From Gammaproteobacteria bacterium (GTDB lineage Bacteria > Pseudomonadota > Gammaproteobacteria > CAISUE01), in NCBI GenBank assembly GCA_947378515.1, contig CANCKG010000017.1, positions 1 to 8,218 on the forward strand: a DNA stretch of 8,218 nt, given 5' to 3'. The notes below the pieces were generated by a model. The model was not told the origin of the DNA, made no database searches, and saw only the letters and a list, made by a program, of their open reading frames with translations. Position numbers and translations under genes: made by a program. This document shows, one piece after another, positions 1,301-7,869 of this stretch; positions within the stretch are counted from its first letter, which is position 1; every line of letters starts with the position of its first letter.

Positions 1301-1450
1301 TGTAAAACCCGCATTCTGACGGGCGAGCCGTGAAGCCTAAGGTATGCACACAACTTCGTCATTACGATGATTTCAGTCATGTGTGGCAACGCATAAGCTT
1401 AGTGGGATTTTAGCAAGAAAGTCTCCGGCCTTTAGGCCGGAGTGTTTTAG
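1301..1450 (+). ncRNA. Structured segment resembling an IS200/IS605 right end / omega-RNA, no tnpB
   Basis: No coding frame is convincing here, but the + strand folds into a nested multi-tier hairpin: AAAACCC (1304-1310) with GGGATTTT (1404-1411, one bulge), CTAAG (1337-1341) with CTTAG (1398-1402), TATGC (1343-1347) with GCATA (1391-1395), ACACA (1348-1352) with TGTGT (1380-1384), and an apical TCGT/ACGA (1356-1367). It is followed by GCAAGAA and a GC-rich hairpin, CTCCGGCC-TTTA-GGCCGGAG (1423-1442). A structured 3' region ending in GCAAGAA plus a TTTA-loop GC hairpin is, from memory, how many IS605/IS1341 right ends and their TnpB guide RNAs look. No transposase or TnpB reading frame lies upstream (glyA is there), so it would be a decayed or non-autonomous copy. 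The family call is by resemblance only; a cis-regulatory or other small RNA remains possible. Confidence 0.35.
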
Positions 1451-1556
1451 ACTTGGAAGAGGTGTACACCTCTCTCCCAAGTCCGCACCTTGTGAAACCT
1501 TAGGCGTAGGCCGAGGTACGGTGCTCCTACCGCTCTGAAGGGCGGGGTTTCAAACC
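1451..1556 (+). other. Second hairpin-rich, noncoding structured segment
   Basis: This segment adjoins the previous one. ACTTGG (1451-1456) pairs with CCAAGT (1477-1482) around a 16-bp perfect palindrome, AGAGGTGTACACCTCT (1458-1473). Further on, GAAACC (1494-1499) pairs with GGTTTC (1546-1551), enclosing GTAGG/CCTAC (1506-1510 with 1526-1530) or, alternatively, a terminal hairpin CCGCTC-TGAA-GGGCGG (1530-1545). The end sequence GAAGGGCGGGGTTTCAAACC again looks like ends of IS200/IS605-type elements. It may belong to the same element as 1301-1450 or be an independent small RNA. No protein frame is supported. Confidence 0.3.
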
Positions 1557-1583
1557 AGCTAAGGAATTTAAAAACAAATTGTG

Positions 1584-1662
1584 TTGCATTTTCGAATGTG
1601 GCTTGGCATAATCAACCCAGTTATCAGCTATGGCGGTCTTGCTATGGCTTTATAAGTATACT
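1584..1662 (+). promoter_or_regulatory. Candidate promoter region of the small lipoprotein gene
   Basis: Two weak sigma70-like options lie upstream of the lipoprotein gene. The first is TTGCAT (1584-1589), a 17-nt spacer, and CATAAT (1607-1612, five of six consensus bases). The second is a good -10, TATACT (1657-1662), without a clear -35 at the right distance; it would leave a leader of about 28 nt. The stretch is AT-richer than the hairpin region to its left. Neither can be preferred from sequence alone. Confidence 0.3.
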
Positions 1663-1682
1663 TTTTTATTAATTGCTGTAAC

Positions 1683-1687
1683 GAGGA
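1683..1687 (+). promoter_or_regulatory. Ribosome binding site GAGGA
   Basis: GAGGA lies 9 nt before the ATG at 1697 and fixes that start. It contrasts with the MNIO gene downstream, which has no such site. Confidence 0.7.
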
Positions 1688-1696
1688 AAGCAAACA

Positions 1697-2032
1697 ATGA
1701 GTAAATTGACCCGCTGTATGATTGTTGCTGCTGCAGCTACTTCTTTGTTCTTGGCAGGTTGTGCGACCCAAGGCACCGATAATGGTAGCGTAACAGCCAC
1801 TCCAGTTGCTGCTACTGCAACTGATGTTGGAACTGTTAAGAACATGAACTCTTGCAAAGGCGTAAGCTCATGCAAAGGTGTAGCTAAACCAGTTTGTAAA
1901 AAACATGTAAAACATCATCACAAAGCTAAAAAAGCTGTAGTTGCTGCTGCAATGACTGAAGCTGCTCCTGCTACTGAAGTTGCTGCTGTTGCTCCTGCAG
2001 CAACTGACGCTGCTGCTCCTGCTGCTGCTTAA
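1697..2032 (+). CDS. Small Cys/His lipoprotein, candidate MNIO-modified metal-binding precursor
   Basis: This 111-aa protein has a lipoprotein signal: Lys3/Arg6, a hydrophobic stretch at 8-20, and lipobox LAGC with the acylated Cys22. After a Thr/Ala-rich linker comes a near-duplicate motif NSCKGV-SSCKGV (51-62), a third Cys in KPVCKK (Cys67) and a His/Lys cluster HVKHHHK (70-76). Residues 77-111 are low-complexity Ala/Pro/Val/Thr; Ala makes up 30 of 111 residues. Cys-Lys-Gly repeats of this kind are known, from memory, in precursor proteins of DUF692 (MNIO) enzymes such as bufferins, and an MNIO gene follows directly. I infer that Cys53, Cys59 and perhaps Cys67 are modified, giving a membrane-anchored metal (possibly copper) ligand. 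The gene has its own Shine-Dalgarno site and terminator. Twenty-two of 30 Ala codons are GCT, suggesting high expression. Without modification it could simply be a metal-binding lipoprotein. Confidence 0.8.
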   Translation: MSKLTRCMIVAAAATSLFLAGCATQGTDNGSVTATPVAATATDVGTVKNMNSCKGVSSCKGVAKPVCKKHVKHHHKAKKAVVAAAMTEAAPATEVAAVAPAATDAAAPAAA

Positions 2033-2054
2033 GTAAAAAAATAGTCGATCTATA

Positions 2055-2083
2055 TTGTGAAATAGAGATTAATTATTTAGAAT
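2055..2083 (+). promoter_or_regulatory. Candidate promoter for the MNIO-mnmA pair
   Basis: TTGTGA (2055-2060, four of six consensus bases), a 17-nt spacer, and TAGAAT (2078-2083, five of six) form a plausible sigma70 promoter between the lipoprotein stop and the MNIO start. The -10 overlaps the left arm of the terminator hairpin. A transcript starting near 2090 would therefore lack that arm and escape termination. Confidence 0.3.
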
Positions 2084-2117
2084 AGGGCACTCGTTATTTT
2101 AAGTGCCCTATTTTTTT
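2079..2117 (+). terminator. Intrinsic terminator of the lipoprotein gene, abutting the MNIO start
   Basis: AATAGGGCACT (2081-2091) pairs perfectly with AGTGCCCTATT (2102-2112), extendable by a G-T and an A-T pair, with a 10-nt loop. The seven-T run at 2111-2117 overlaps the right arm. This is a textbook rho-independent terminator about 48 nt after the lipoprotein stop. Its T-tract ends 2 nt before the MNIO ATG, so it probably also limits read-through into the enzyme gene. Confidence 0.85.
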
Positions 2118-2119
2118 AT

Positions 2120-2956
2120 ATGAATACTCTCCCTCTTAGCAACCTTGGTTTTGGCCTCGGTTTACGCGCTGAATATTACGCATTAATTCATGACACCAAA
2201 CCCGCTGTTGATTGGTTTGAAATTATCACCGAAGATTATTTACTCCCCGGTGGACGACCTCTTTATAATGTGTATAAAATTCGCGAGCACTATCCGATTG
2301 TGATGCATGGCGTCTCACTCTCGATCGGTAGCACCGATCCGCTTGATTTTGCTTATCTTAAGCAAGTAAAACAATTAGCCCAGAATTTGCAAGTGCCGTG
2401 GTTATCGGATCATTTGTGTTGGACTGGGATTCATCATCAAAATGCTCATGATTTATTGCCCATTCCCTATACCCAAGAAGCTTTAAAACATGTTGTGGGG
2501 CGCATAAGCCAAGTGCAAGATTTTTTAGGCCGGCAATTAGTATTGGAAAATGTGTCGAGTTATTTGAATTATAAAGCGTCTGAATTAACCGAATGGGATT
2601 TTTTGATCGAAGTGGTAACGCAAGCCGATTGTAAAATTTTACTCGATGTAAATAATATCTTTGTCAGCAGTTATAATCATCGGTTTGATCCCGACATTTA
2701 TCTGAATGCTATTCCACAACATCGTGTTCAACAAATCCATATTGCCGGTCATACAAACCTAGGTGATATGATTATTGATACCCATGATCACACGGTGGTG
2801 CCACCGGTCTGGCAACTTTATCAAAAAGCCTTACAACGTTTTGGCATGGTAACGACGTTACTCGAACGTGATGATCGCTTTCCTCCTTTGCCAATGCTGT
2901 TAAATGAATTGACTAAAACGCGGCAAATGGCGCGTAAAGCGTTGGCTAATCGATGA
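2120..2956 (+). CDS. DUF692/UPF0276 multinuclear non-heme iron oxidase (MNIO)
   Basis: This 278-aa TIM-barrel-type protein belongs to the family that includes MbnB, TglH, HvfB and BufB. These enzymes use two or three iron ions and O2 to rewrite cysteine residues in peptide substrates. Conserved segments are intact: GLGLR (12-16), [10 protein letters not shown] (62-71), SDHLCW (96-101), HDLLPIPYT (110-118), LENVSSY (142-148), [13 protein letters not shown] (174-186), IHIAGH (206-211), IDTHDH (219-224) and [10 protein letters not shown] (248-257). The His, Asp, Glu and Asn residues of these motifs are the likely metal ligands. Length is typical for the family. The ATG at 2120 is the earliest in-frame ATG/GTG/TTG after a stop at 2078-2080, and it places GLGLR at the usual position. 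No Shine-Dalgarno site precedes it, only the terminator T-tract. Its substrate is inferred to be the upstream Cys-rich lipoprotein. The usual DUF2063-type partner is not in the window. Its stop overlaps the mnmA start. Confidence 0.93.
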
Positions 2957-4020
2957 AAGTCATGTTGGGTTTATCCGGTGGCGTTGATTCGTCCGTCGCT
3001 TTGTGGCGTTTGAAAGAACAAGGCGTTGCGGTCGAAGCCCTGTTTATGAAAAACTGGACCGAGGAAGATTCAACCGAGTATTGTTCTAGTGCAGTGGATT
3101 TAGCCGATGCGCAAGCGGTCTGTGATCATTTAAAAATACCATTGCATCAAGTGAATTTTAGTGATGAATATTGGCAGCGAGTATTTGAATATTTCTTGAG
3201 TGAATATGCCGCGGGCCGAACGCCTAATCCTGATATTCTGTGTAATAAAGAAATTAAATTTACCGCTTTTCTTGATTATGCGCGAGCCCTAGGTGCCGAT
3301 AAAATCGCCACCGGTCATTATGCGAAAAATGTTTGGCGTGATGATCGTTGGCATTTGCAGCGCGCTATGGATAATAATAAAGATCAAAGTTATTTCCTCT
3401 ATACGCTTAATCAACAACAGCTTAGCCATAGTCTATTTCCGATTGGTGATTTAACCAAACCAATGTTACGTCAACTGGCGAAACAAGCAGGGCTGCCGAC
3501 GTTTGCCAAAAAAGACAGTACCGGCATTTGTTTTATCGGTGAACGGCGCTTTAAAGATTTTTTAAGGCGTTTTCTGCCCGCCAAGCCGGGCTTGATTAAA
3601 ACTCTGGCTGGACAAACACTCGGTGAACATCAGGGTTTAATGTATTATACCTTAGGTCAGCGTCAAGGCTTAAGGGTAGGGGGCTTAAAAAATAGTAGTG
3701 AAGCACCGTGGTTTGTCGCGGCCAAAGAGCTTGCTCACAATGAATTGATTGTGGTCCAAGGTCATGATCATCCGGCTTTATTTCGCTCGAGTTTAACGGC
3801 TACCGATATTCATTGGGTCGCTGGCGAATACCCCACCGATGGAACGTTATTAACCGCGAAGATTCGCTATCGCCAAGCCGATCAAGACTGCACGGTGGCT
3901 GATTTTAGCACCAAGAGTTTAAGCGTTAATTTTATGGAGCCACAGTGGGCTGTGACGCCTGGTCAATCGATTGTTTTTTATGCTGGGGTTGATTGCTTAG
4001 GTGGTGGGGTAATTGTTTAA
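2953..4020 (+). CDS. mnmA: tRNA-specific 2-thiouridylase MnmA
   Basis: MnmA thiolates U34 in the wobble position of tRNA-Lys, -Glu and -Gln, taking sulfur relayed from IscS through the Tus proteins. At 355 aa it is close to the E. coli enzyme. Visible features are the PP-loop SGGVDSS (8-14), FMKNW (31-35), [13 protein letters not shown] with catalytic Cys97, GHY (121-123), [11 protein letters not shown] (142-152), and [11 protein letters not shown] with the second catalytic Cys193. The C-terminal beta-barrel region contains [13 protein letters not shown] and the ending [21 protein letters not shown]. The ATG lies inside ATGA (2953-2956), shared with the MNIO stop, so translation is probably coupled. 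This start puts the PP-loop 7 residues in, slightly shorter at the N-terminus than E. coli. A housekeeping tRNA gene downstream of an MNIO is probably co-transcription rather than shared function, although both concern sulfur chemistry. Confidence 0.97.
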
Positions 4021-4072: not shown

Positions 4073-5461
4073 TCAGACGGGATTGGCGACTTCAGCGCTA
4101 TAAGGGTAAATATTACTGCTGCCACTGAGCGTGTAAACGCCTAAAATGTAATTTTCAAAAACTGTATTGGCTGTCGTTGTTGCAGAATTGGGATATTTAA
4201 TATCGATCCAACTCGCCGTGGTGTTAAAACTTTTATCATTATTACGGCTAACATGAGAAAAATCACTTATTAAATCGGATGTAGTCGACATGCCCGCGAG
4301 ATTATAGCCGGTAGAACCATCGGTAGTGATACCTTCAAAATGAGAGATTAAAGCACTATTATTTTGATAAGTATAGGTTTGCCAATGGGTGGCTATCTGC
4401 GTGCTTGAATCCCAATCGACCAAAGAAGCTACATCGCCTGAGGTGATAGGGTCTCTATAGCCACCGGCGATCGTGTAGCTGTTGCCGCCATTGTACCAAA
4501 TGCCATAAGCAGTAAGACTGGTCGTGCCCACAACAGGGGGCTGTAATTCATAATACTTGGTATTCGCTGAGTTATAAATAAACACTCGGCCGGATAAAAC
4601 ACCGGCATTTGTGGTATCAAAATTGCCGACGACAATCCCATTCATGGTGCTGTGGGGAATGACGCCTTCTAAGGCATCCCCTCCATTTAACAGTGTGCTT
4701 ACATCCATATTCGTCCAGTCGCCGCTCGATCCGCTGCCATTTATGGGGCCATCGTAATAAAAGCCATAACTGTAATTGCCACCACTTACGGTCTTATAGG
4801 TGCCGACAAAATGAACATTACCTGCGGTCGAACTATTATCGGGCCCATAGAGGCTAGAAGATACTAGCGTTGTGCCGGAATACAGAGATGGTGAAACCGT
4901 AATAGGATACCAATTGCCGCTATTACCACTTAAGGGGCCTGCATAAAGGTAGGCTTGGTCCTTACTCTCACCATTAGGAAGGTAACTGCCGGTGAGATAG
5001 ACATTGCTGGAATTTGTGACGCCACGAGCACCAGTAATAGAATTGTTGGTGCCACCTGGTATTGATGGAAAAGTAGCGTATTGGTTGACCGTGATACTGC
5101 TTGAGGTGGTAGTCGTATAATTCGTTGCAGCAGCACTCAGCGTCGTGGTGCCTAAGCCTGCCGCCGTTAACGTGACGGTACAGCTATTGTGAGCTGTGGA
5201 TAAAGCGCAAATGCTCGTGTTTAGCGTCAAGACTTGAGTGTTTTGGCTGGCGATAGTGACCAGTTGATCATAAGTCACCCCGTTGGAATCGACTAACGAT
5301 ATGGTCGCGGTAGTCGTGTTTGCCAGGTTTAGATTGTCATTATTAACAGTGATCGTCAAGATTCCAGGATTGTCGCTGTTATTATTCCCCGCACCATCAC
5401 AAGCGCTTAACGTTAATGTGGTGAGCAGAAGGGTGGTGAATGTTAATAAACGTTTATTCAT
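4073..5461 (-). CDS. Lipoprotein with Ig-like domain and repeated propeller-like body, paralog A
   Basis: This 462-aa protein has signal peptide MNKRLL plus a hydrophobic stretch and lipobox LSAC (Cys21), followed by Asp22 and an Asn/Gly/Ser linker. Residues about 33-126 look like a bacterial Ig-like (Big) beta-sandwich, with a close Cys pair in CALSTAHNSC (Cys85, Cys94) suited to a periplasmic disulfide. Residues 140-455 contain about six imperfect repeats spaced 52-62 residues apart. Their cores are NVYLTGSY (153-160), NVHFVGTY (215-222), GIVVGNFD (275-282), YTIAGGY (329-335), YNLAGM (386-391) and YILGVY (438-443), often followed by a short beta-strand pair. This suggests a beta-propeller somewhat like HAF-repeat proteins. 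I recognise no enzymatic motif and no specific function. It is a tandem paralog of the gene at 5597-6973, 135 bp upstream. A GAGG site (CCTC on the + strand, 5466-5469) precedes the ATG by 4 nt. Confidence 0.85.
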   Translation of the reverse strand: MNKRLLTFTTLLLTTLTLSACDGAGNNNSDNPGILTITVNNDNLNLANTTTATISLVDSNGVTYDQLVTIASQNTQVLTLNTSICALSTAHNSCTVTLTAAGLGTTTLSAAATNYTTTTSSSITVNQYATFPSIPGGTNNSITGARGVTNSSNVYLTGSYLPNGESKDQAYLYAGPLSGNSGNWYPITVSPSLYSGTTLVSSSLYGPDNSSTAGNVHFVGTYKTVSGGNYSYGFYYDGPINGSGSSGDWTNMDVSTLLNGGDALEGVIPHSTMNGIVVGNFDTTNAGVLSGRVFIYNSANTKYYELQPPVVGTTSLTAYGIWYNGGNSYTIAGGYRDPITSGDVASLVDWDSSTQIATHWQTYTYQNNSALISHFEGITTDGSTGYNLAGMSTTSDLISDFSHVSRNNDKSFNTTASWIDIKYPNSATTTANTVFENYILGVYTLSGSSNIYPYSAEVANPV

Positions 5462-5596: not shown

Positions 5597-6973
5597 CTAA
5601 ACACTCGGAAAGCTACCGACAAAACCACTAATAATATGACTACCGGCCACTTGATAAACGCCGATGAGATTATTTAAATACGTACTATTGGCAGAAGTAA
5701 TGCTTGATCCAGGATAAGTCGCATCAGTCCAGGTAGCCGCTCCAAATGAGCCATCATTATTCACTGAAATATGGGTGATTGCTGCACCAGTAACTTCAGT
5801 GGTAACCCAATTAGCCGGTAGATAGAAACCCGTGCCACCATCAGACGTAAGACCTTCAAAATGAGAAACTAGCGCTGTAAGCGGTTGATTCTCATAAGCA
5901 TAGGATTGCCAATGGGAAAATGTATGGGTTGTCGAATCCCAATCGACTAAATAACCACTATCAGCACCGTGGTTATTCACATCGCTGTAACCACCCGCAA
6001 TGGTATAACTGGTGCCACCATTGTACCAAATGCCATAAGCGGTGATGCTTAACGCGCCAGCATGGGTGATTTCGAGCCAATAGGTGCTGGTAATATCACA
6101 AATAAACGCGCGACCTTGTACTAAAGCAGTATCATAATTGCCGACAATATAACCACCCATAGTACTGTGCGCAATCGTATTAAGCACGCTATCGCCTTGA
6201 GCGTACATCGATGAGGGAGGGGTTAGGGTAAGCCAATTATTGGTGTTCGCGCGATCGGCAATAGTGCCTTGATAGACTAAGCCTAAGGCTGTATCGGCTC
6301 CTTGTTCAGAGGTCGTGTAATTGCCGACCAGTTGCACTTCATCGGTTTGATTGCCGTTATTAGGGCCATAGAGTGAAGTATTGGTGACAGTAATACCTAT
6401 TGAGTTAGGGTAATTAAATTCGTACCATGTACCACTGCCATTTAATGGCCCTTGGTAGAGTAAGCCTACTTTTGAAGCGGAAGCTGCTTCATAGATACCG
6501 CTGATATAAACGTTGGGTGAATCATTGCTAACACCACGTATGCCGGTTAATTCATTGCTACTGCCGAGCACGGCAGCAGAGTAATTGAGAGTGCTGTATT
6601 GCGCGACAGTCAAGTTTTCTGAGCTGACGGTTGCATAATTAGCAGATGTAGCGCTGATCGTGGTTATACCAATACTCACGCCGGTCAATGTCACCGTACA
6701 AGAGCTGTGCGCCGTCGATAAGCTGCAAGCGGCCGGATCAACCGTCAGGACGCCGCCATCCTGGCTAGTGACAAAGACGGCTTGATCGGACGCATTGTTA
6801 GAGCCACTCAGTGAAATGGTTGCGCTTGAGGTGCCATCAACAGCCAAACTATTGGTAGTTGTTTGAATCGTTAAGTGACCAAAACTGTCGTCATTGCCAC
6901 TGCTGCTATCGCAGGCTGTTAAACTCAACGTTGCTAAAGTAAGGTAGGTAAAACGCATTATCTCATTAGTCAT
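5597..6973 (-). CDS. Lipoprotein with Ig-like domain and repeated propeller-like body, paralog B
   Basis: This 458-aa paralog of the gene at 4073-5461 has the same architecture. The lipobox is LTAC followed by Asp, then an Ig-like domain with the same Cys pair (CSLSTAHSSC), then repeats whose cores read NVYISGIY, EVQLVGNY, GYIVGNYD, YTIAGGY and LIGVY. The segment TAYGIWYNGG-SYTIAGGY is almost identical in both proteins, as are LVDWDS and SHFEG. The start is ambiguous. A GTG at 6985 overlaps the glycosyltransferase stop, and ATGs lie at 6973 and 6958. I choose 6973 because the signal peptide then has 20 residues before the acylated Cys, exactly as in paralog A. None of the three has a strong Shine-Dalgarno site. 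The glycosyltransferase stop is 5 nt upstream, so the two genes are probably co-transcribed. A free Cys in AFICDI is absent from paralog A. Function unknown. Confidence 0.83.
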   Translation of the reverse strand: MTNEIMRFTYLTLATLSLTACDSSSGNDDSFGHLTIQTTTNSLAVDGTSSATISLSGSNNASDQAVFVTSQDGGVLTVDPAACSLSTAHSSCTVTLTGVSIGITTISATSANYATVSSENLTVAQYSTLNYSAAVLGSSNELTGIRGVSNDSPNVYISGIYEAASASKVGLLYQGPLNGSGTWYEFNYPNSIGITVTNTSLYGPNNGNQTDEVQLVGNYTTSEQGADTALGLVYQGTIADRANTNNWLTLTPPSSMYAQGDSVLNTIAHSTMGGYIVGNYDTALVQGRAFICDITSTYWLEITHAGALSITAYGIWYNGGTSYTIAGGYSDVNNHGADSGYLVDWDSTTHTFSHWQSYAYENQPLTALVSHFEGLTSDGGTGFYLPANWVTTEVTGAAITHISVNNDGSFGAATWTDATYPGSSITSANSTYLNNLIGVYQVAGSHIISGFVGSFPSV

Positions 6974-6978
6974 AGCTT

Positions 6979-7869
6979 TTAACACTTTATGGTTATTAAA
7001 AAATTTCTAGCAGCTTGAAAAATGACCTGTTGCCTGATTAACGCGACCGATTGCGGTTTTACGAAGGTGAGCCAGCTTATTTTTAAGCGACTGTGTAACA
7101 AGCTGCGTTTGGCTAAGCGCTGACAATCGCGCCTACTGTAATGTTTTTGATAAAAAATATATAGACTGTGTTGTTTTTTTAAACGGGTTGCCGCTATTTT
7201 TTCAGTGCGTTGCGAAGCACCCCCGATATGCTCGACGATCACTTGCTCACAGACAGCGATTTTATAACCGGCTTTGCGTACGCGTAAGCACAGATCCGTT
7301 TCTTCAACATAGAGAAAATAATCGGGATCAAAGCCGTGTAATTGTGCAAAGCGTGTTTTGAGCATCAACATACTTGAACCTTGAATCCAGGCAATGTTGC
7401 CAGGTAAATGGGCTAAGTGGGGCGTGGATTTTAACTGTTTTTGACCCGGATAATGATAAGCTGGAAGAATGCGCTGTTTGGAATTCGTATCGATTACCGT
7501 GGTGCCGATTAAGCCACAGGTGGGATTGGCAATGGCATAATCTACTAAGATTCTTAAAGACTGAGAGCCTTGTAATTGCGCATCGGGATTGATGAAATAC
7601 AGGTATTGTCCAGTGGCATGTAAAGCCGCCAGATTATTGGCTTTGCCAAAGCCAAGATTGATCGAACTGGCAATGAGCTTTATTTTTGTGCCAAAGCGCT
7701 GCTGTAATGCATCGACACTACCATCATCACTGGCATTATCGACGACCCAGATGTCAAAGCGAATGGATGTTTGGCGAAGTAAACTCTGAATGCAATCGCT
7801 AACTTCGACGCGCGTATTATAATTGACGATGATAATGGAAACATCAATGGTCAGATTAGTCGCTGTCAC
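6979..7869 (-). CDS. GT2-family glycosyltransferase (rhamnosyltransferase-like)
   Basis: This 296-aa protein has a GT-A fold of the WbbL/rhamnosyltransferase type, which transfers a sugar from a nucleotide donor to a cell-surface polysaccharide or lipid-linked acceptor at the cytoplasmic face. Motifs: VSIIIVNYN (10-18), VVDNASDDGS (42-51, donor binding), NLGFGKANN (71-79), FINPDAQ (92-98, the DXD-equivalent region), WIQGSSMLM (161-169), GFDPDYFLYVEETDLCLR (179-196, containing the ED catalytic region), and EHIGGAS (213-219). The C-terminal 60 residues are basic and less conserved. Length is typical. The start is GTG, overlapping the upstream TGA as GTGA (7866-7869); the Shine-Dalgarno site is poor, so translation is probably coupled to the DUF493 gene. 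Donor and acceptor cannot be told from sequence. Downstream are the two surface-type lipoproteins, which could hint at envelope function. Confidence 0.92.
   Translation of the reverse strand: MTATNLTIDVSIIIVNYNTRVEVSDCIQSLLRQTSIRFDIWVVDNASDDGSVDALQQRFGTKIKLIASSINLGFGKANNLAALHATGQYLYFINPDAQLQGSQSLRILVDYAIANPTCGLIGTTVIDTNSKQRILPAYHYPGQKQLKSTPHLAHLPGNIAWIQGSSMLMLKTRFAQLHGFDPDYFLYVEETDLCLRVRKAGYKIAVCEQVIVEHIGGASQRTEKIAATRLKKQHSLYIFYQKHYSRRDCQRLAKRSLLHSRLKISWLTFVKPQSVALIRQQVIFQAARNFLITIKC

What the first reader, a model, noticed from the sequence alone, without database searches (positions are those of the whole stretch)
1697..2956. Lipoprotein-anchored candidate MNIO RiPP (bufferin-like) metal-binding system
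A small lipoprotein with tandem NSCKGV/SSCKGV motifs, a third Cys and a His/Lys cluster sits directly upstream of a complete DUF692 MNIO. Known MNIO substrates (methanobactin, HvfA, bufferins) have Cys motifs that become metal-binding heterocycles. Known bufferins are, as far as I recall, soluble periplasmic proteins with ordinary signal peptides. A lipobox-bearing precursor would keep the modified metal ligand on a membrane, a variant I do not know to be described.
Basis: partly seen in the sequence, partly recalled or inferred. Interest (0 to 1): 0.75.

Follow-up and report, generated by a model that had tools for sequence, protein, structure and literature searches.

The report
Cut-down, membrane-tethered bufferin-type copper buffer
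Beside an intact enzyme gene of a known copper-protection family, this bacterium carries a small predicted lipoprotein with two conserved cysteine sites that the enzyme would likely turn into copper-binding rings; membrane-tethered relatives are already in print, but here the core is cut down to two sites and the helper-protein gene lies elsewhere in the genome.

Summary
In detail: ORF 1697-2032 is a 111-aa predicted lipoprotein (lipobox LAGC, tandem CKG, His/Lys block) ahead of an intact MNIO (2120-2956) that passes NCBI's bufferin-maturase cut-off (362.8 vs 310 bits). The pairing is real: a context-blind search of 36 genomes with the lipoprotein gave four hits, all directly upstream of an MNIO. 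The novelty claim does not hold: Antoine et al. 2025 predict lipoprotein signals in ~16% of Buf2 bufferins, and Chen et al. 2025 purified a lipidated MNIO product. What is unusual is different. (1) The precursor fails the BufA2 model and keeps two conserved CKG sites; the 'third Cys' is Val in the same-genus relative. (2) The partner gene bufC is not in the cluster: mnmA sits in its slot, and an intact-looking bufC lies beside cysS on another contig in both genomes. (3) A terminator-like hairpin separates precursor from enzyme (also in 26 of 59 related gaps). (4) bufA silent sites are more conserved than those of two ribosomal protein genes, suggesting high expression. Best reading: an abundant, likely outer-membrane-anchored, bufferin-type metal buffer matured by BufB plus an unlinked BufC. 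Modification and copper binding are untested.

The parts
1563..1696 (+). upstream region of bufA, presumed promoter and leader
   Evidence: 127 of 134 bases identical to G001, while the flanking coding DNA is much more diverged. The sigma-70 scan reports no plus-strand site here, so the promoter is not located.
1697..2032 (+). bufA-like precursor: 111-aa predicted lipoprotein
   Evidence: ORF; 95% aa identity to G001; no NCBIfam or Pfam family over its cut-off
1751..1762 (+). lipobox LAGC, predicted acylation at Cys22, Ala at +2
   Evidence: sequence; pattern rule only, SignalP was not available
1853..1861 (+). first CKG (Cys53), predicted modification site
   Evidence: kept in G001; CKG repeats also in P0001 and P0002
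1871..1879 (+). second CKG (Cys59), predicted modification site; five residues between the two Cys, as in the NACKGQNACKG part of Buf2 precursors
   Evidence: kept in G001; Buf2 neighbours listed
1895..1897 (+). Cys67 codon, not conserved
   Evidence: Val in G001
1898..1933 (+). Lys/His block KKHVKHHHKAKK
   Evidence: sequence; identical in G001; similar blocks in L126, L005, L129, L136, L059
2079..2117 (+). terminator-like hairpin with T run between precursor and enzyme
   Evidence: folds at -17.4 kcal/mol, z -5.7; kept in G001; comparable element in 26 of 59 gaps against 1 of 295 shuffled gaps.
2120..2956 (+). bufB: MNIO (DUF692) of bufferin-maturase type
2953..4020 (+). mnmA, in the slot usually held by bufC, overlapping bufB by 4 bases
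   Evidence: Pfam; the same overlap in G001

Best explanation
This is a cut-down bufferin-type system: a small predicted lipoprotein with two conserved Cys-Lys-Gly sites is encoded next to an intact bufferin-type MNIO gene, and that enzyme, with a DUF2063 partner encoded elsewhere in the genome, would likely convert the two cysteines to copper-binding thiooxazoles, leaving a metal buffer that is predicted to be anchored in the outer membrane. Shown: the genes, the lipobox by rule, the enzyme family and its intact conserved residues, the conserved pairing, the unlinked partner with a confident two-domain model, the hairpin and the silent-site conservation. Inferred: BufB and BufC act on the precursor in the cytoplasm, removing 4 H per CKG cysteine (predicted -8 Da in all); Sec and the lipoprotein pathway export and acylate it at Cys22; Lol sorts it outward (Ala at +2; rule recalled). 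The hairpin likely keeps the enzyme scarce relative to the precursor, so the cell would hold a large membrane-tethered stock of copper ligand; the His/Lys block would add weaker metal sites or contacts with the envelope.
For: Enzyme over the bufferin-maturase cut-off, 362.8 vs 310 bits, all 23 conserved polar positions kept, in the Buf2-side set of 72 MNIOs, branch 96/93. Pairing found without using context, 4 of 4 hits. A DUF2063 gene is kept in both genomes although unlinked, and its model (pLDDT 88.8) matches the MNIO partners TglI and NGO1945. MNIO and DUF2063 co-occur in 23 of 24 MNIO genomes. CKG sites unchanged between the two species while the rest drifts. P0001 and P0002, the closest relatives, give weak BufA2 matches at 20.8 and 20.2 bits. 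[quoted passage not shown] 4 H lost per motif and Cu binding in the EGKCG relatives (PMC13097082 passages); lipidation of an MNIO product shown (PMC12636315). Silent-site conservation: 8 of 66 four-fold sites differ in bufA against 478 of 793 in eight other genes and 48 of 150 in rplL plus rplJ.
Against: The precursor does not reach the BufA2 model (no hit; the G001 copy 7.1 bits, cut-off 60) and lacks the six conserved Cys of Buf2. bufC is outside the operon, contrary to the usual order, and diverged (HvfC model 40 bits, cut-off 142). Of 18 mature cut-down sequences only 9, the window's among them, beat all 200 shuffles against a Buf2 profile. No copper gene or copper-responsive site was found or searched for. 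A related EGKCG-type cluster was not induced by copper (PMC12538549 passages).
Confidence: 0.6

Rival explanations
1. The lipoprotein is no longer modified: it is an abundant structural or Cys/His metal-binding envelope lipoprotein, and the MNIO beside it is a relic of a decaying bufferin cluster in a small genome.
For: Six-Cys pattern and BufA2 match lost; bufC displaced; Cys67 not conserved; same-genus genome of about 1.7 Mb.
Against: The MNIO keeps all 23 conserved polar positions and 89% aa identity to G001; one MNIO and one DUF2063 gene are both kept in G001, which is 99% complete; both CKG sites are unchanged.
Confidence: 0.22
2. It is modified as proposed, but the biological ligand is not mainly copper (gold, zinc, nickel or an oxidant), or the His/Lys block rather than the rings does most of the binding.
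For: Relatives with long His blocks and few Cys exist, e.g. L136. PMC12452194 suggests roles beyond copper for some bufferins, with MerC fusions and gold-induced operons.
Against: Functional evidence in the papers seen concerns copper (PMC12452194, PMC13097082, PMC12538549).
Confidence: 0.15
3. For the silent-site conservation only: the bufA cassette was recently exchanged between the two species, rather than being held constant by high expression.
For: The conserved block runs from 134 bases upstream through bufA to the hairpin and stops at the flanking genes, as a recombined segment would.
Against: bufA codon choice resembles that of rplL (Ala GCT 22 of 30 and 17 of 25), as expected of a highly expressed gene.
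Confidence: 0.3

Closest known systems
Buf2 / BufA2 bufferins with BufB-BufC maturases (NCBIfam NF050166, NF050167; PMC12452194)
   Same: BufB-type MNIO over the cut-off on the Buf2 side of the tree; exported precursor gene just before bufB; CKG spacing of the Buf2 core; a DUF2063 partner in the genome; lipoprotein versions already predicted for about 16% of Buf2.
   Different: No BufA2 match; two conserved CKG instead of six Cys; His/Lys block; bufC not in the operon and replaced there by mnmA.
DAG-RiPPs: lipidated MNIO products such as NedA and DybA (PMC12636315)
   Same: MNIO substrate with a lipoprotein signal; NedA also uses a DUF2063-type partner.
   Different: NedA has EGKCG repeats and DybA a C-terminal motif of the ChrH subfamily; lipidation is shown there and only predicted here.
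EGKCG oxazolins / captophorins such as HvfA, fontiphorin and bulbicupramide (PMC13097082, PMC12538549)
   Same: MNIO plus PME1 partner; Cys-derived rings that bind copper.
   Different: Motif is Lys-Cys (EGKCG), here Cys-Lys-Gly; the MNIO falls on the Buf2 side, away from the two EGKCG outgroup rows, and scores under the HvfB cut-off (287.9 of 360).
Methanobactin (MbnB)
   Same: DUF692 family; weak PDB match 7dz9.
   Different: 49.7 bits to the MbnB model, cut-off 325; methanobactin precursors lack a Sec signal (PMC12452194).

Membership tests
Buf2 / BufA2 bufferin precursor | matches NF050166 Cu_RiPP_BufA2 over its cut-off (60 bits) | tested here: not met
   window: no hit up to E 10; G001 copy 7.1 bits
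Buf2 / BufA2 bufferin precursor | six (or twelve) conserved Cys (PMC12452194) | tested here: not met
   mature part after Cys22 has three Cys, two conserved in G001
Bufferin biosynthetic system | MNIO of BufB type | tested here: met
   NF050167 362.8 bits, cut-off 310
Bufferin biosynthetic system | DUF2063 (PME-type 1) partner present | tested here: met
   one PF09836 gene in the held contigs of G000 and one in G001; model matches TglI and NGO1945
Bufferin biosynthetic system | gene order bufABC | tested here: not met
   bufA-bufB present, bufC on another contig in both genomes
Bufferin biosynthetic system | Sec-type signal peptide on the precursor | tested here: inconclusive
   n-region with K and R, hydrophobic core and LAGC lipobox by rule; no SignalP
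Bufferin biosynthetic system | Cys converted to thiooxazole; copper binding | not testable with these tools
   needs mass spectrometry and metal titration
DAG-RiPP (lipidated MNIO product) | lipoprotein signal on an MNIO substrate | tested here: inconclusive
   lipobox by rule only
DAG-RiPP (lipidated MNIO product) | acylation of the N-terminal Cys | not testable with these tools
   needs isolation of the protein

The most novel reading that the evidence does not exclude
A bufferin stripped to its two working cysteines has become a bulk outer-membrane lipoprotein, perhaps among the most abundant proteins of these cells: thiooxazole ligands line the membrane, a His/Lys block cooperates with them, and maturation is run in trans by a partner uncoupled from its enzyme's operon, with a terminator setting substrate far above enzyme. 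Cut-down forms seem to have arisen more than once in related lineages.
Probability: 0.33. Interest if true: 0.62.

Novelty: new variant of a known kind. Interest (0 to 1): 0.42.

Why it matters
It gives a minimal natural substrate (two conserved CKG sites) for asking what a bufferin maturase needs, and a natural experiment in which the partner protein is made from another locus, while a distant relative (L062) has the two fused into one protein. The hairpin between precursor and enzyme genes, found in 26 of 59 related gaps, is a testable rule for how one enzyme serves a large pool of substrate. The lipid anchor as such is already known.

Tried and rejected
Rejected: lipid anchoring as the novelty (in print). 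Rejected: Cys67 as a conserved third site. Rejected: an MNIO without partner (bufC found elsewhere). Not shown: one family of cut-down lipoproteins with a single origin (7 changes at the fewest, starred branches force 2; p-AU 0.063, undecided; the bootstrap had not settled). Weak: homology of the cut-down cores to Buf2. Against a Buf2 profile 9 of 18 mature sequences (two of them from L044) beat all 200 shuffles, the window's included (10.7 bits, best shuffle 8.4); L059 was matched by 1 shuffle, L007 by 2, L044 by 6 and 26, L092 by 14, L136 by 36, and L004, L127 and L128 by 150 or more. hhalign gave 86% for a near set of 7 sequences but 41% for all 18.

Led nowhere: Rfam gave only matches below the gathering scores; the promoter scan found nothing on the plus strand upstream of bufA, and its terminator scan does not list the hairpin at 2079-2117; GroEL could not serve as a yardstick, as it was not found in the held G000 contigs; DoxX occurs once in each genome but not in the cluster; a PDB sequence search with the bufC profile found nothing at E up to 0.01; a paper search for 'bufferin' mostly matched 'buffering'; the 2024 PNAS bufferin paper is not held and is known here only through other papers.

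Limits: genome contigs gave 68 loci. One search drew 369 genomes, 76 with a match at E up to 1e-95; only its capped loci were read (25 new, L125-L149). One search kept 110 distinct loci; the tree used 76: 72 with 335 bits or more and four outgroup rows. MNIO stretches under 230 aa and duplicates were dropped. Row L008 is mislabelled as lipoprotein (a spurious upstream ORF), so Buf2 with lipobox is 18, not 19; those labels are mine, by pattern. The shuffles keep base composition only, not dinucleotides. The bufC flag misses fusions: L062, L067 and L071 are MNIO-DUF2063 fusions. and the first alignment read the G000 bufC without its first codon; searches use the correct frame ends. The sample of loci is centred on relatives of this MNIO and is no survey.

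Full report
OBSERVATION. The first encodes 111 aa with a lipobox L-A-G-C ending at Cys22, CKG at Cys53 and Cys59, a further Cys67, a block KKHVKHHHKAKK and an Ala-rich tail. The second encodes a full MNIO: PF05114 364.4 bits and NCBIfam MNIO_BufB 362.8 bits against a cut-off of 310, while the HvfB, ApyH, MbnB and ChrH models stay below theirs. It aligns to 3bww, TglH (8hci, 8hi7) and MbnB (7dz9) and keeps all 23 positions where His, Asp, Glu or Asn is at least 95% conserved over 76 MNIOs.

PAIRING. The window lies in a 0.99-Mb partial genome, 58.7% complete. G001, the one same-genus genome found (99% complete), has the same order glyA-lipoprotein-MNIO-mnmA; its contig has the length of CAISUE010000003.1, titled uncultured Gammaproteobacteria bacterium isolate AlinenLipids_bin-1826. 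Searching 36 genomes with the lipoprotein alone gave 4 hits: the window, G001, G031 and G017, in each case the gene upstream of the MNIO. The protein database gave 4 relatives with E up to 1; the best two, P0001 (E 2e-15) and P0002 (E 9e-12), are lipobox proteins with three CKG and Lys/His tails; their gene neighbours are unknown.

PRECURSOR TYPE. On the tree of 76 MNIOs the window is one of 72 on the Buf2 side, split from the Buf1 and EGKCG outgroup rows at 96/93. Precursors next to these 72, by my pattern rules: Buf2 without lipobox 28 (29 after correcting L008), Buf2 with lipobox 19 (18), cut-down lipoprotein 14, none found 11. A lipobox is thus common near this enzyme type. The window's precursor fails BufA2. 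The cut-down set (L001, L002, L126, L005, L127, L128, L004, L129, L136, L092, L044, L007, L059, L062) shares a lipobox and CKG or Cys-rich cores, many followed by His/Lys, but is scattered on the tree; a single clade is neither shown nor firmly rejected. Nine of 18 mature sequences, the window's included, beat all shuffles against a Buf2 profile; the three G031-type sequences clearly do not. My inference is repeated reduction from Buf2 towards its central, modifiable cysteines; for the G031 type nothing here supports it.

PARTNER. In 26 of 86 other loci the ORF after the MNIO starts within the same 4-base overlap that mnmA has in the window and G001 (I did not check each of those ORFs for DUF2063). 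In the window and G001 that slot holds mnmA. One DUF2063 gene was found in each genome, on another contig, between DUF192 and cysS. In G001 the MNIO is about 25.7 kb from the nearer end of its contig and bufC about 4.2 kb from its own, so they are not neighbours. Over 36 genomes 24 of 27 DUF2063 genes lie within 3 kb of an MNIO; the exceptions are G000, G001 and a second copy in G017. MNIO and DUF2063 co-occur in 23 genomes, with one MNIO-only genome, G025, 91% complete. PMC13097082 says PME1 genes are almost universally next to MNIO genes (passage). The displaced BufC is diverged (NCBIfam HvfC 40 bits, cut-off 142), but hits PF09836 at 58.6 bits, cut-off 27.2; its model (pLDDT 88.8, pTM 0.82) matches TglI 8hi7_A (E 9.4e-7) and NGO1945 3dee (E 1.9e-4), and more weakly (E 0.13-0.39) leader-binding lasso-peptide proteins. 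Among the 14 cut-down loci bufC is adjacent in 10, fused to the MNIO in L062, beyond the contig end in L129, and displaced only in the window and G001.

EXPRESSION ANATOMY. The hairpin with T run at 2079-2117 folds at -17.4 kcal/mol, z -5.7, and is kept in G001. By the rule of my script such an element lies in 26 of 59 precursor-MNIO gaps, against 1 of 295 shuffled gaps; 11 of 13 in the cut-down set (L059 was outside the distance limit), 15 of 46 in the rest. The standard scan misses the window's element because of its 10-base loop. Between G000 and G001, bufA differs at 8 of 66 four-fold sites, against 478 of 793 pooled over glyA, bufB, mnmA, GT2, DUF493, bufC, DUF192 and cysS (Fisher p 8e-15) and 48 of 150 for rplL plus rplJ (p 0.002). 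Its Ala codons (GCT 22 of 30) resemble rplL (17 of 25). High expression is the simplest reading; a recent exchange of the cassette is the rival.

LITERATURE. PMC12452194 (abstract, Results parts 1-3 of 4, Discussion, passages): ~16% of Buf2 precursors have predicted lipoprotein signals; hundreds of further small Cys-containing ORFs with signal peptides precede MNIOs, so this precursor may already be in its Table S2, which I could not see. PMC12636315 (abstract, mining section): tri-acylated NedA with -12 Da over three EGKCG motifs. PMC13097082 (passages): 5-thiooxazole, 4 H lost per repeat, Cu binding; precursors with multiple Cys-Lys motifs named as one category. PMC12538549 (passages): the Microbulbifer cluster was not induced by copper. 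In the text I saw I met no two-site lipoprotein bufferin, no bufC displaced by another gene, and no hairpin between bufA and bufB; the searches behind this are and the look-up, over an open-access subset.

VERDICT. A known enzyme family with an already described kind of lipid anchor, but an unusual variant: reduced core, partner in trans, a hairpin between precursor and enzyme, and a precursor gene conserved at silent sites beyond two ribosomal protein genes. No chemistry has been tested.

Noticed in passing
window 1407-1560: A ~160-base structured non-coding repeat (fold z -5.0) lies between glyA and bufA; 40 copies of about 130-165 bases at 88% identity or more, this one included, were scored in the 0.99-Mb partial genome, but only a 42-base piece in G001. 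No Y1 transposase was found in the held contigs. The 3' end resembles IS200/IS605 ends (recalled).
   Followed up: partly
window 4073-5461 and 5597-6985 (-): Tandem paralogues of 462 aa each, 43% identical, with lipobox-like N-termini and no Pfam family over its cut-off.
   Followed up: partly
L115:3693-5325 (G017:C51): DUF2282 (Buf1-type) precursor, DUF2063 and DoxX genes in a row without an MNIO; the genome's only MNIO match is the one on C81, so that enzyme may serve two precursors.
   Followed up: partly
L062:5001-6689, L067:4977-6635, L071:4974-6626: MNIO and DUF2063 fused in one protein of 550-562 aa; L062 also has a cut-down CKG lipoprotein and a Buf1-type precursor upstream.
   Followed up: partly
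59 precursor-MNIO gaps read: Terminator-like hairpin between precursor and enzyme genes in 26 of 59 gaps, against 1 of 295 shuffles: perhaps a general way to set precursor-to-enzyme ratio.
   Followed up: partly
window 2100-2122: The MNIO start codon follows the hairpin's T run within a few bases, with no visible ribosome-binding site, in both species.
   Followed up: no
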